From: Sulfolobus sp. SCGC AB-777_G06
GTDB taxonomy: Archaea > Thermoproteota > Thermoprotei_A > Sulfolobales > Sulfolobaceae
Reading direction: 5' to 3'
DNA length: 23,881 nucleotides
Assembly (NCBI GenBank): GCA_003086555.1
Contig: QEFN01000014.1
Location: 1 to 23,881, forward strand
Below, in pieces: positions 1,016 through 7,407 of the stretch (the stretch's first letter is position 1; the number at the start of each line of letters is the position of its first letter). The translations under genes were made by a program, and so were the position numbers. The notes under the pieces are model-generated. The model did not search any database. It worked only from the letters and a program-made list of their open reading frames with translations, and had not been told where the DNA came from.

Positions 1016-1282
1016 CTAGGGAGTAGTATATAAATGCCGCGGTAGTATAGCCCGGTCAAGCTCTACGCGCCGACAGTATGCAGGCCTTTCGAGCCTGTGA
1101 CCCGGGTTCAAATCCCGGCCGCGGCACTTCATATCGTAATATTCCTTTACGATTTGTTCTAAAGAACCAACGTAATTATCCCTTCTCTGACCGCCATCAC
1201 CGTTCTCTATTAAGTAAACATAATACTTCCCCTTAACCTCACGAATCCTAATATCACCAAATGTGAAAACTTTATTTCCCAT
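1016..1282 (-). CDS. int: intN: N-terminal fragment of partitioned SSV-type integrase
   Basis: The frame begins MGNKVFTFGDIRIREVKGKY and reaches CRGRDLNPGHRLER, which is encoded by the antisense of the tRNA 3' part. This peptide is the familiar att-encoded segment of SSV-type tyrosine recombinases. Residues 1-66 belong to the integrase; the last 22 codons, to a stop at 1016, are read antisense through the host tRNA and are an accident of integration. The fragment has no catalytic residue. On excision it would be joined to the frame ending at 6463. In SSV viruses the same partition leaves intN overlapping the intact tRNA gene, as here. The leader upstream (1283-1664) holds CACGTG motifs and an inverted repeat that may control it. 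Confidence 0.88.
   Translation of the reverse strand: MGNKVFTFGDIRIREVKGKYYVYLIENGDGGQRRDNYVGSLEQIVKEYYDMKCRGRDLNPGHRLERPAYCRRVELDRAILPRHLYTTP
1036..1126 (+). tRNA. tRNA-Glu(UUC) with a 16-nt intron in the D-loop
   Basis: The acceptor stem GCCGCGG (1036-1042) pairs with CCGCGGC (1119-1125), with discriminator A1126. The T-arm is CCGGG-TTCAAAT-CCCGG. The anticodon stem CAGGC/GCCTG encloses loop CTTTCGA (1086-1092), giving anticodon UUC at 1088-1090. The D-arm is interrupted: GGTCA (to 1058) is separated from AGTATGC (from 1075) by 16 bases. A bulge-helix-bulge can be drawn with central helix CGGT (1053-1056) against GCCG (1069-1072), flanked by 3-nt bulges CAA (1057-1059) and ACA (1073-1075). 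Cutting in the bulges removes 1059-1074 and restores a standard 75-nt tRNA. The 3' part is the integration target of the downstream element. Exact splice sites could shift by a base because of the flanking A residues. Confidence 0.92.
1084..1128. other. attL: integration site inside the intact tRNA-Glu gene
   Basis: These 45 bases, from the anticodon stem of tRNA-Glu to two bases past its 3' end, are repeated exactly at 7257-7301. The match continues leftward to 1078 with one mismatch (G1083 against A7256). That position is the third base of the anticodon stem, and the left copy has the base that keeps the stem paired. The crossover therefore lay to the right of this base. Confidence 0.92.
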
Positions 1283-1305
1283 ACCTTCAGCCTATTTATA
1301 TTTAT

Positions 1306-1349
1306 CACGTGGGGCTATTTAAGGACTGATAATTATCATATCACACGTG
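1306..1349. promoter_or_regulatory. Paired CACGTGG motifs upstream of intN
   Basis: CACGTGGGG begins at 1306 and CACGTGGAG at 1344, in the 70 bases before the intN start (1282). Further CACGTG hexamers lie at 1581, 1677, 2251 and 5833. Six copies in a 6.2-kb AT-rich element is several times the chance expectation of about one. The decayed intN upstream region right of attR keeps TACGTGGAG at the matching place (about 7519). They are candidate operator sites for integrase control; no protein can be named. Confidence 0.35.
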
Positions 1350-1530
1350 GAGTTGAAAGAAGATGTTAACATTTCCTCACTTATGCGAAAAACTGAATTT
1401 CGACTAAACTACTGCAGTTAGAAAATTCAAAAGCACGGTTTGATGAAGAGAAAGAGCGTTAGACAAATTCAAAAAATTGCATTGAATTGTAACATGTGGT
1501 TTGTAATTTTATTACATGGCTGACTATTTA

Positions 1531-1624
1531 GTCACCACTGTCACTACAAAAAAAGCCTATTAATAGTCAAAAAGTTTACACACGTGTATAATAATAATAG
1601 ATTTTTTTTAGTGACAATGGTGAC
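1531..1624. repeat. Inverted repeat, 16-nt arms
   Basis: GTCACCACTGTCACTA (1531-1546) and TAGTGACAATGGTGAC (1609-1624) are reverse complements with one mismatch. Poly-A (1548-1554) and poly-T (1602-1609) tracts extend the inner pairing. The 62-base loop contains ACACGTGT (1579-1586), itself a palindrome. The repeat lies between the 3' end of the 115-aa gene and the intN start, so it may be a terminator, an integrase operator or an accessory recombination site. Confidence 0.6.
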
Positions 1625-1664
1625 ATAATTGCATGCGTGGTATAAAAATTCAATTTCAAAAAAT

Positions 1665-2012
1665 TCAATTAAACTCCACGTGTTCTTCATCAATCCAGTG
1701 GCATAGGTTTCTCTTTTCACAAAAATCTAACAATTCATAAGCCCTAAGACCCAATTCGTCTTGTAAGTCTTTTCTACTCCTGGCTTTCCCGCTATACTGT
1801 TTGTACAGTTCTATCAAGTTGTCAGGAGTATCATTATTGCCATCATAGCCCACCGTGCTATTACCATTTTCATCTTTCTTTAGCCTTATGCCTACATAGC
1901 ACCAGGTTCTTTCTCGATTTATCCTCTTTTGGGATTTAGTTATCCTAAATTTAGTTTCCAGTCTCTTGGTAACGATTTTATTATATATATATGTTAGATT
2001 CCAACCCTTCAC
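1665..2012 (-). CDS. Hypothetical protein, 115 aa, in the element
   Basis: I do not recognise a family. The frame opens with GTG at 2012 (MKGWNLTYIYNK) without a clear ribosome binding site, so the true start may lie further in. The first third is basic (KRLETKFRITKSQKRINRER). A middle segment (WCYVGIRLKKDENGN) is followed by a helical C-terminal part with three Cys (DFCEKRNLC and one earlier). The segment YVGIRLKKDENG followed by an LIELYKQY helix faintly resembles the N-terminal domain of SSV-type integrases (YYVYLIENGDGG then IVKEYY in intN here). That is only a pattern similarity. Its place between the integrase and the replication genes, with its own long leader, suggests a separately regulated DNA-binding protein; this is inference. 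Confidence 0.55.
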   Translation of the reverse strand: MKGWNLTYIYNKIVTKRLETKFRITKSQKRINRERTWCYVGIRLKKDENGNSTVGYDGNNDTPDNLIELYKQYSGKARSRKDLQDELGLRAYELLDFCEKRNLCHWIDEEHVEFN

Positions 2013-2126
2013 AACTAAAACTCGTACGTTACGGGGTCAAAAATTTCCCTCAACCATATGTTTGGTCACTATAAACGCAAAAAATTGTAAAATAGACTGA
2101 AAAAAGATAATATAGATGAACAAAAC

Positions 2127-2258
2127 TGAACGGGTACCCGTTCAACTTTTTGCAAAAATGAAATAAAATCAGATGAGAGAGAAAAGTTGAGTCTCCCCAG
2201 ACTCAATTTAGTGCAACCGAAAGTAAACAAATCTCTCAAACATATATTTGCACGTGCA
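2127..2258. repeat. Cluster of three palindromes downstream of the replication operon
   Basis: Three perfect inverted repeats lie within 132 bases. TGAACGGGTACCCGTTCA (2127-2144) is an 18-bp palindrome without a loop. TTGAGTCT (2187-2194) and AGACTCAA (2199-2206) surround a CCCC loop. TGCACGTGCA (2249-2258) is a 10-bp palindrome. They sit between the 3' end of the minus-strand 111-aa gene (2288) and the start of the 115-aa gene (2012), the only gap of that size in this half of the element. They may end the rep transcript, bind regulators of the 115-aa gene, or form a single-strand replication structure. Confidence 0.6.
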
Positions 2259-5900: not shown

Positions 5901-5911
5901 TTCCACTTTCT

Positions 5912-5963
5912 AAAATTAGTCTATAAGGGGCTATCGCCCCTTAACCCCGTTTCTAGTTTATCC
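5912..5963. repeat. Hairpin-bearing direct repeat, copy 1
   Basis: This copy is 52 bp. Its core TAAGGGGC-TATC-GCCCCTTA (5924-5943) is a perfect 8-bp stem with a 4-base loop. It is followed by ACCCCGTTTCTAGTTTATCC, shared with copy 2, and preceded by AAAATTAGTCTA, shared with copy 3. Confidence 0.85.
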
Positions 5964-6038
5964 AACTAGTTTACCTTACCCTCCTCCTCGCTAACCTAAT
6001 TTACCACTTACCTCTTCCCTAATTCGTTAAAGTATAAT

Positions 6039-6081
6039 CTATAAGGGGCTATCGCCCCTTAACCCCGTTTCTAGTTTATCC
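6039..6081. repeat. Hairpin-bearing direct repeat, copy 2
   Basis: The stem-loop core is at 6042-6061. The 43 bp here are identical to the corresponding part of copy 1. Confidence 0.85.
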
Positions 6082-6168
6082 GGCTAACTTACCCTCCTTA
6101 CCTCCTTAACTTACCTCCTCCCTAAACATAGAACATTTTACATCAAAACTCTATTCTTCTTCTCTTCT

Positions 6169-6205
6169 AAAATTAGTCTATAAGGGGCTATCGCCCCTTA
6201 ACCCC
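6169..6205. repeat. Hairpin-bearing direct repeat, copy 3
   Basis: The stem-loop core is at 6181-6200. The 37 bp match copy 1 from its left end through the CCCC after the stem, then diverge. Confidence 0.85.
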
Positions 6206-6462
6206 TTACTAACTAAACATACCTACCTCCTTAACCTACCTTTTTACCTCCCTTACCTCCCTCACATTACCAAAACTCCGAACTCGAATTCAGGGGCTGG
6301 CGGTGAAAAGAAAAGAAAGAGTGACTCAAGCTATATCCATCTTTACTACATCTATCCAACCTCTGAACGGTGAAAAGGGAATAAGAGAATAAGCAGTCAC
6401 GAGGCGGGAGGTGAGTAAAGGAGAAAACGGCTTAGAGGTGTCTTCCTAAATTAACCTGATAA

Positions 6463-7407
6463 TCAAAAATTCGTGTGCAACCATTCCGCGTACTTCTTAT
6501 ACTCTTTTTTCGCTAAAGTGAATAAGTCCAGATAATGCTTTGTTAGGATATTCCCGGGTGTCCTACCCTCAATAAAGTCCACAATTTCGCCCGGTATATT
6601 TAACTCTAGCATTTTTGTAGCCACGAATTTTCTGATGTACTTAGGTGGGACTAAATTAAGCTTCTTAACATATTTATCCACATAAGCTTTTGAAATCTTA
6701 ATTTGTTTTAGCTCTGTAACGTGGAATAAGTAGAAACTCTTCTTTTGACCCCTAGTCCAATTAAGTATATATATGCTAAACCCTTCTTCCCTAATTTCGT
6801 TTTCCGGGTTATAATCGTTTAATACTTTAAGTGCTTCAGTTTCTCTTGAACCGCTTTCCAGTAATAACCTATAAAATGTATGAAGAGTAGGATATTGTTT
6901 AACGGCGTTTAAAGTTTGGCGTACTTCTTCTAGTGTTGGCACTTTTAGGTCTGGTCTAGTTTTTTTGACTTTCAAAGATTCAGGCGGGTCTCTGTTCAGC
7001 ACGAGTTTGTAGAAATTCCTCCAGGCTTTAATGCAATTATTCGATTCTTTTCTTCCTTGCTTAATACATGAGATATATTGTTTTATTGTCTCTTCACTGA
7101 TTTTCTTACTACGCAAAACTAATTCGAATTTGAGTAAATCACTTGCGGAAATTTCAGAGTTGTTAACAAACGTTTCTACATAGCCGTTTGTGATAACTTC
7201 TTTCAATTCATCATAATTAACATTGGGGGACTTAGGGGAGATACCCCCTAATGCAAGCCTTTCGAGCCTGTGACCCGGGTTCAAATCCCGGCCGCGGCAC
7301 TGTGGGGGAATATCCCCCCACTCCCTCAAATGCTGGTATAAAGTTCGATTATCTTCTCTGAGAAGTAACGTAAGTGCGGCTCTGCTTACTGCTTCTGTCC
7401 TTCTCAT
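6463..7407 (-). CDS. int: intC: catalytic part of partitioned SSV-type integrase
   Basis: Tyrosine recombinase that inserts the element at tRNA-Glu. The frame as it stands is 314 residues. Residues 37-50 are the att-encoded CRGRDLNPGHRLER; residues 51-314 are the element's own catalytic part. Active-site candidates are R188 (SGSRETEA), K222/K223, KYIR at 256-259, R282 and the nucleophile Y292 (TKHYLDL). Excision would join 52 codons of intN to this part, giving about 330 aa, the usual SSV integrase length. The first 36 residues here come from outside the element. They are the remains of another intN (see 7302-7640), which happens to be in frame, so a start at 7407 could even yield a chimeric protein. 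The catalytic part shows no mutation. Confidence 0.9.
   Translation of the reverse strand: MRRTEAVSRAALTLLLREDNRTLYQHLREWGDIPPQCRGRDLNPGHRLERLALGGISPKSPNVNYDELKEVITNGYVETFVNNSEISASDLLKFELVLRSKKISEETIKQYISCIKQGRKESNNCIKAWRNFYKLVLNRDPPESLKVKKTRPDLKVPTLEEVRQTLNAVKQYPTLHTFYRLLLESGSRETEALKVLNDYNPENEIREEGFSIYILNWTRGQKKSFYLFHVTELKQIKISKAYVDKYVKKLNLVPPKYIRKFVATKMLELNIPGEIVDFIEGRTPGNILTKHYLDLFTLAKKEYKKYAEWLHTNF
7257..7301. other. attR: 45-bp copy of the tRNA-Glu 3' part
   Basis: Exact copy of 1084-1128. It lacks the 5' half of the tRNA and is not a tRNA gene. Its left neighbour A7256 would mispair in the anticodon stem. Confidence 0.92.

What the first reader, a model, noticed from the sequence alone, without database searches (positions are those of the whole stretch)
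1084..7301. A 6.17-kb integrative element with an SSV integrase but an unfamiliar replication module
The integrase, its partition and the 45-bp att repeats are seen directly. The rest does not match the Sulfolobales plasmid and virus types I know: no PrimPol-helicase RepA (pRN type), no recognisable fusellovirus structural genes, no conjugation genes. Instead there is a ribbon-helix-helix gene, a 124-aa gene, an AAA+ ATPase gene and a 111-aa gene in overlapping order. It may be a new plasmid family or a virus satellite.
Basis: partly seen in the sequence, partly recalled or inferred. Interest (0 to 1): 0.72.

Follow-up and report, generated by a model that had tools for sequence, protein, structure and literature searches.

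The report
Archaeal virus-satellite plasmid with patchwork replicon
A small DNA element sitting in an arginine tRNA gene of a heat-loving archaeon belongs to a known kind of virus-dependent plasmid, but its replication region is a patchwork and points to where such elements, and the viruses related to them, may start copying their DNA.

Summary

(1) The '115-aa gene' is the last ~100 codons of a pRN-plasmid RepA, followed by an intact-looking pRN-type origin stem-loop (22 of 23 positions pair). (2) Inside the 5' part of the MCM-like gene lies an inverted dyad of three 9-bp repeats per arm. In 13 of 18 such genes tested, this one included, the best inverted repeat lies there and no codon shuffle reaches it; 0 of 8 control genes. 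Repeat sequences differ between elements. I propose it as the replication origin of pSSVi-type elements and MCM-carrying fuselloviruses. (3) A decayed older int(N) beyond attR shows the tRNA was used before.

The parts
1036..1127 (+). tRNA-Arg(CCG), integration target, kept intact
   Evidence: ARAGORN
1084..1128 (+). att repeat, left copy (45 bp exact)
7257..7301 (+). att repeat, right copy
1128..1282 (-). int(N), N-terminal half of SSV-type integrase
   Evidence: PF07935; 59% to SSV7 over 39 aa; DNA 89% to pXZ1 int
6463..7299 (-). int(C), catalytic half of SSV-type integrase
   Evidence: PF16795; 73% to SSV7 integrase
1531..1624 (-). pRN-type origin stem-loop (23-nt arms 1531-1553/1602-1624, 48-nt loop) 40 nt downstream of the RepA-tail stop
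1430..1664 (-). pRN-family DNA downstream of RepA
   Evidence: 68% to pHEN7 over 1430-1668; 80% to pDL10 over 1432-1515
1665..2012 (-).
   Evidence: 61% to pRN1 residues 805-904 and to pHEN7
2288..2623 (-). 111-aa protein of the SSV10/11 cassette, function unknown
   Evidence: 62% to SSV10/11; 64-69% in L007, L100-L103
2607..4595 (-). MCM-like AAA+ ATPase with C-terminal winged helix, probable replication initiator/helicase
   Evidence: AlphaFold2; MCM fold; TrmB wHTH
4355..4474 (.). inverted dyad with three 9-bp iterons per arm inside the 5' coding part of the MCM-like gene; proposed replication origin
4567..4941 (-). 124-aa protein of the cassette, function unknown
   Evidence: 56-58% SSV10/11, 59% pSSVi ORF; 130 homologues
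4994..5149 (-). 51-aa ribbon-helix-helix (CopG/Arc-like) regulator
   Evidence: weak RHH_9 match below cut-off; 84% to L010
5150..6460 (.). 1.3-kb non-coding, pyrimidine-rich region with three hairpin repeats (5925-5942, 6043-6060, 6182-6199)
7302..7560 (-). decayed int(N) plus promoter of an earlier SSV7-like element integrated at the same tRNA

Best explanation
It is a 6,173-bp pSSVi-type integrative plasmid, probably a fusellovirus satellite. Its SSV-type integrase recombines attP, inside its own gene, with tRNA-Arg(CCG). This splits the gene (shown), so the integrated form should be unable to excise unless a related integrase is supplied in trans (inferred from the literature). The excised circle would replicate with the MCM-like ATPase as initiator and helicase (fold predicted, function inferred), under RHH control (inferred). 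The origin is most likely the iteron dyad inside the ATPase gene (structure shown, origin role inferred). Spread would need a helper SSV for particles (inferred from pSSVi). The RepA tail and its stem-loop come from a pRN-type plasmid that once recombined with this lineage (shown by homology). Whether that origin still works is unknown.
Against: No reads, circular form or helper virus is available for this contig, and no whole genome is held. pSSVi ORFs 177, 150, 56b and 87, and its CopG protein, gave no tblastn hit in the window. The dyad could be a transcriptional operator or an RNA hairpin instead of an origin. It is absent by this test in L105, L107a and SSV12, and reached by 1 and 4 of 100 shuffles in L100 and L107b. 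Within-element similarity of the arms (0.79 against 0.48 between elements) is partly by construction, because arms were chosen for complementarity. At protein level a weaker 3-residue period also shows in residues 201-310 (10.6 against 15.1 mean identities).
Confidence: 0.75

Rival explanations
1. An autonomous integrative plasmid that never uses virus particles: same genes, but transfer by other means.
For: No gene for packaging was recognised. Apparently free circular relatives exist and one of them (L008) had no integrase hit.
Against: The closest characterised element of this architecture, pSSVi, is reported as encapsidated with a fusellovirus (PMC3543421, passages). The cassette itself is carried by fuselloviruses.
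Confidence: 0.3
2. A fusellovirus provirus that lost its virion genes in place after integration (defective SSV10/11-like provirus).
For: Integrase and replication cassette both have SSV relatives at 48-73%.
Against: Both att sites and both integrase halves are intact. Similar compact gene sets recur at about 4.2-7.6 kb in other tRNA genes and as apparent free circles. There is pRN-derived DNA and a plasmid-like non-coding region instead of virion-gene remains.
Confidence: 0.1
3. The dyad in the MCM-like gene is not an origin but an operator or mRNA hairpin that regulates the operon, or merely a low-complexity linker with 3-residue repeats.
For: It encodes a disordered linker (residues 1-79, pLDDT below 50), and lag-3 repeats are common there.
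Against: A linker needs no inverted arrangement: codon shuffles that keep composition never reach it in 13 of 18 genes. In L100 two further copies of just this segment lie outside the gene, one with stops.
Confidence: 0.35
4. The RepA tail plus stem-loop is an inert scar of recombination with a pRN-type plasmid.
For: By eye RepA is truncated inside its winged-helix domain (compare P0122), and no full-length RepA exists in the window.
Against: The stem-loop is still almost perfectly paired. The tail has no stop, and differences from pRN1 fall 30/21/51 over codon positions. Recent capture would explain both.
Confidence: 0.6

Closest known systems
pSSVi (NC_013777, 5,740 bp, Saccharolobus solfataricus P2)
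   Same: SSV-type integrase, MCM-like ATPase (47%), 121-aa ORF upstream of it (59%), a CopG gene upstream by position, size; dyad at the same place in the ATPase gene.
   Different: Window element has the 111-aa gene, a pRN-type origin fragment and a pyrimidine-rich non-coding region. pSSVi ORFs 177, 150, 56b, 87 and its CopG protein gave no hit in the window.
SSV10 / SSV11 (MK054236, MK054237)
   Same: Collinear 124-ATPase-111-integrase cassette, 56-62% for the first three proteins and 48% for int(C).
   Different: They are 17.8-18.5 kb fusellovirus genomes; no virion gene was recognised in the element. Their small genes gave only a chance-level hit to the RHH protein.
pXZ1 (NC_010365, 6,970 bp)
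   Same: Plasmid carrying a fusellovirus-type integrase; int DNA 78-89% identical.
   Different: Its large protein (1,077 aa, annotated hypothetical) did not match the window's ATPase (pXZ1 is not among the 19 records), and no pRN-type stem-loop was found downstream of it (52 of 60 shuffles reach its best repeat).
pRN1 / pHEN7 (NC_001771, NC_004853)
   Same: C-terminal RepA residues (61%) and the origin stem-loop downstream.
   Different: The element has only about the last ninth of RepA.

Membership tests
pSSVi-type integrative satellite | SSV-type integrase gene split at a tRNA | tested here: met
pSSVi-type integrative satellite | ~121-aa gene followed by MCM-like ATPase gene | tested here: met
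pSSVi-type integrative satellite | CopG/RHH gene upstream of the pair | tested here: inconclusive
   an RHH-like gene is there by position, but its Pfam match is below cut-off and pSSVi CopG gave no hit
pSSVi-type integrative satellite | about 4-8 kb, no virion genes | tested here: met
   tblastn of 23 SSV7 proteins hits only the integrase and B471
pSSVi-type integrative satellite | accessory ORFs 177, 150, 56b, 87 | tested here: not met
   no tblastn hit in the window at E 0.01; also variable among relatives, so I do not count these as defining
pSSVi-type integrative satellite | packaging and spread with a helper fusellovirus | not testable with these tools
   known for pSSVi from passages of PMC3543421 and PMC8371274
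Fuselloviridae | virion genes VP1, VP3, end-filament protein | tested here: not met
   only SSV7 homologues used as queries
pRN plasmid family | full-length PrimPol-SF3 helicase RepA | tested here: not met
   only the equivalent of residues 805-904 present
pRN plasmid family | ~100-nt origin stem-loop downstream of repA | tested here: met
   definition from PMC4234260
pRN plasmid family | plrA (orf80) | not tested
   no plrA query was run
MCM-type helicase (ATPase protein) | MCM AAA+ core fold | tested here: met

The most novel reading that the evidence does not exclude
pSSVi-type satellites and the MCM-carrying fuselloviruses keep their replication origin inside the initiator's own gene: an inverted dyad of two or three 9-bp iterons per arm, hypervariable between elements, which would act as a replicon-specificity code. 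The window element adds a second, captured pRN-type origin and could therefore be replicated either by its own MCM-like initiator or, in trans, by a resident pRN plasmid.
Probability: 0.4. Interest if true: 0.78.

Novelty: new variant of a known kind. Interest (0 to 1): 0.6.

Why it matters
Fusellovirus origins appear unsettled: the SSV1 minireview passages I read (PMC9608457) give only an early hypothesis around Tind that later deletion work weakened. A compact candidate shared by many relatives, with an element-specific repeat, makes the question directly testable in genetically tractable Saccharolobus. The element also shows virus, satellite and plasmid replication modules being swapped piece by piece within one 6-kb circle.

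Tried and rejected
Rejected: 'new plasmid family'; a real 115-aa gene; the 314-aa ORF 6463-7407 as a working integrase, since its start lies in the decayed int(N) with stops upstream.

Led nowhere: the genome-contig scan with the ATPase alignment found no relative although relatives exist (against 39), so that miss means little. tRNA genes near the TFB locus differ between relatives or are missing, so no empty site for this tRNA was obtained. The 124-aa model (pLDDT 68.9) had no PDB match (best E 0.53). The pRN-type stem-loop was not found downstream of the replication genes of pXZ1 or pIT3. The palindrome at 2184-2206 was considered as a partition site, but the pNOB8 copy lies inside parB and not upstream of aspA. 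The pSSVi integrase query was translated out of frame in its first part; its hits are not used in any count.

Dropped before counts: the 18-gene dyad test left out L010, L008 (gene cut by contig ends), L109 (fragment) and all metagenome homologues (no DNA). For genome loci the tested stretch starts at a point that I chose upstream of the protein match. SSV10 and SSV11 are near-identical and counted separately. The arm comparison used 12 elements. The 120 proteins are the listed part of 189. Terminal repeats were tested on 3 of the 6 viral-contig loci; two of the others are SSV7 and ASV1 themselves.
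Full report
What is there. The window is a complete 23,881-bp contig (P0001) of a Sulfolobaceae archaeon. Its TFB protein is 88-89% identical to a Sulfolobaceae MAG, Aramenus and Metallosphaera javensis, so I assign no genus. No whole genome is held. At the left end an intact tRNA-Arg(CCG) carries the att core. The 51-bp repeat recurs 6,173 bp further right with one mismatch. Between the copies lie, all read leftward: RHH (51 aa), 124 aa, ATPase (~659 aa), 111 aa, a 115-aa ORF and int(N), with int(C) at the right end.

What it is related to. 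The ATPase is 61-62% identical over its length to a protein of SSV10 and SSV11, 47% to pSSVi ORF735 and 36-39% to SSV12, ASV1 and SSV7 proteins over shorter stretches. The 124-aa protein is 56-58% identical in SSV10/11 and 59% in pSSVi, the 111-aa protein 62% in SSV10/11, and int(C) 73% in SSV7. The order 124–ATPase–111–int is that of SSV10/11. Of 214 genomes of the order, 24 have an ATPase match at E <= 1e-3; many of these cover only the winged-helix part. I count 11 strong places (E <= 1e-29) in 8 genomes. In the ten stretches of 18-20 kb around them, 8 of 11 places lie between an int(C) and an int(N), next to tRNA-Arg, Gly or Val genes; in one of the 8 (L107, second place) the left integrase gene also has an N-terminal part. 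The other three have int(N) only. No SSV7 virion protein matched at E <= 1e-4. All four cassette genes were found together in L100 and L007; L101-L103 gave no hit to the 124-aa protein, and L104-L106 and L108 none to the 111-aa protein. G187 carries such an element in tRNA-Arg(CCG) too (L108). Three IMG/VR contigs (L007, L008, L010) have exact terminal repeats of 115, 127 and 91 bp, so they look like free circles. L010 is the nearest sister in backbone: same att reading, int 72-78%, RHH 84% and 83% DNA identity over 1.1 kb including non-coding sequence. Its ATPase, however, is of the SSV7 type. Modules are therefore exchanged.

A captured pRN origin. The 115-aa ORF aligns at 61% with residues 805-904 of pRN1 RepA and with pHEN7 RepA. 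DNA homology to pRN-family plasmids runs on downstream from 1668 to 1430. For pRN1, a ~100-nt stem-loop starting 54 bp after repA is the probable origin and is conserved in structure rather than sequence (PMC4234260, abstract and passages). The window has such a structure 40 nt after the stop: 23-nt arms and a 48-nt loop. Among repeats with loops of 25-80 nt it is the best of the whole window; 0 of 60 and 0 of 150 shuffles reach it, and 22 of 23 positions pair, one as G-T. Against pHEN7, five positions differ on both sides and still pair, while positions 11, 15 and 19 pair here and not in pHEN7, and position 17 the reverse. pRN2, pDL10 and three chromosomal pRN-type plasmids (L153-L155) have one as well; pXZ1 and pIT3 do not by this test. 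By eye the tail lacks the first part of the winged-helix domain seen in its stand-alone homologue P0122, so I doubt that it binds DNA by itself. None of the MCM-type relatives examined had a significant hit to the tail.

The dyad inside the initiator gene. A 58-nt inverted repeat (43 of 58 Watson-Crick pairs) lies at gene positions 122-241, where the protein is disordered. I tested 18 ATPase genes against 100 codon shuffles each. In 13 the best inverted repeat lies near the 5' end of the stretch and no shuffle reaches it: window, pSSVi, SSV10, SSV11, L007, L101-L104, L106, L108, ASV1, SSV7. L100 (1 of 100) and L107b (4 of 100) have it there too; L105 (24), L107a (10) and SSV12 (14) have their best repeat elsewhere. 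In 8 control genes (four host genes, two RepA, two SSV7 genes) 35 to 98 of 100 shuffles reach the best repeat. Seven of 12 elements show three 9-bp repeats per arm and five show two; an outer box like TGAAATCGTCAAC precedes them in six (window, pSSVi, L007, L101-L103). The repeat differs between elements: CGCGTAGA(A/T) here, CCCCGG in pSSVi, CCCCTA in SSV10, CCCGCG in L102, TGTTACGGT in SSV7 (my reading). Of 24 arms, 23 have their highest self-identity at lag 9 among lags 6-12. At protein level the best 3-residue-period stretch falls in residues 1-110 in 109 of 120 homologues, though only 79 of 120 beat every shuffle, and a weaker 3-residue period also shows in residues 201-310. In L100, two further copies of just this segment lie between the 111-aa gene and int, one with two stops in frame. 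That is hard to explain by protein function. Iteron dyads are a common form of initiator-binding origin (general knowledge), so I propose the origin here; an operator role is the main rival.

The non-coding region. The 1.3 kb between RHH and int(C) reaches 79% pyrimidine in 400 bp and has three hairpins of the form TAAGGGGC-N4-GCCCCTTA followed by ACCCC. The same hairpin, with loops of 3 or 4 nt, occurs once in L010, three times in pIT3, twice in pARN4 and once in pING1. It occurs in 5 of 214 genomes, with no match of the reversed control pattern. A search with the whole region found no archaeal virus in the phage collection, and the pattern search of IMG/VR found only L010. It looks like a plasmid feature. 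Section B of the conjugative plasmids is described as their putative origin region (PMC4390865, passages); whether the hairpins lie in it was not tested.

History of the site. Right of attR, 7302-7560 resembles int(N) and its promoter (66-77% DNA). One frame reads SSV7-like integrase residues with three stops. An earlier element thus used the same tRNA; no further part of it was recognised in the window with the SSV7 and pSSVi queries.

Mechanism and status. Shown: split integrase, att sites, gene homologies, pRN-type stem-loop, dyad. Predicted: MCM fold. Inferred: excision only with integrase in trans (passages of PMC8371274), replication from the dyad, packaging by a helper (pSSVi as cited in PMC3543421, passages; the original pSSVi papers were not read). 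Other papers were seen only as passages: PMC3718332, PMC4158269, PMC9608457, PMC5120986; PMC8628083 only as a reference-list entry.

Noticed in passing
window 7302-7560: Decayed int(N) and promoter of an older SSV7-like element at the same tRNA; no further part of that element was recognised in the window.
   Followed up: yes
window 7700-10211: Short or broken ORFs between the relic and the TFB gene: a phosphoesterase, a weak 2'-5' RNA ligase match, and an ADP-ribosylglycohydrolase split into two ORFs; probably a decaying island.
   Followed up: partly
window 5925-6199; L010 3673-3696; pIT3 (L129) 737-816: Hairpin TAAGGGGC-N3/4-GCCCCTTA followed by ACCCC shared by several different Sulfolobales plasmids, in some beside pyrimidine- or purine-rich non-coding tracts.
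   Followed up: partly
window 2184-2206; L103 8043-8065; L140 2503-2528; L141 2509-2531: Palindrome AAGTTGAGTCTCCCCAGACTCAA plus a conserved right flank, shared with parB coding sequence of pNOB8 and pBEU9E1, and in part with pDL10 and pXZ1; origin unclear.
   Followed up: partly
L010 from 4627, across the contig ends: The ATPase ORF of this circle carries several tandem copies of a TGANGANSYISPNNSVE-type stretch near its N-terminus.
   Followed up: no
L107 (G204): Two MCM-type genes and several int(N) fragments lie close together near tRNA-Val and tRNA-Tyr genes, suggesting serial integration.
   Followed up: no
P0122 (Saccharolobus shibatae, 2.79-Mb contig): A stand-alone 144-aa C-terminal piece of pRN-type RepA exists on another record, so such tails occur elsewhere.
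   Followed up: no
L008: A 5.0-kb apparently circular relative with ATPase, 124-aa and RHH genes but no integrase hit.
   Followed up: no
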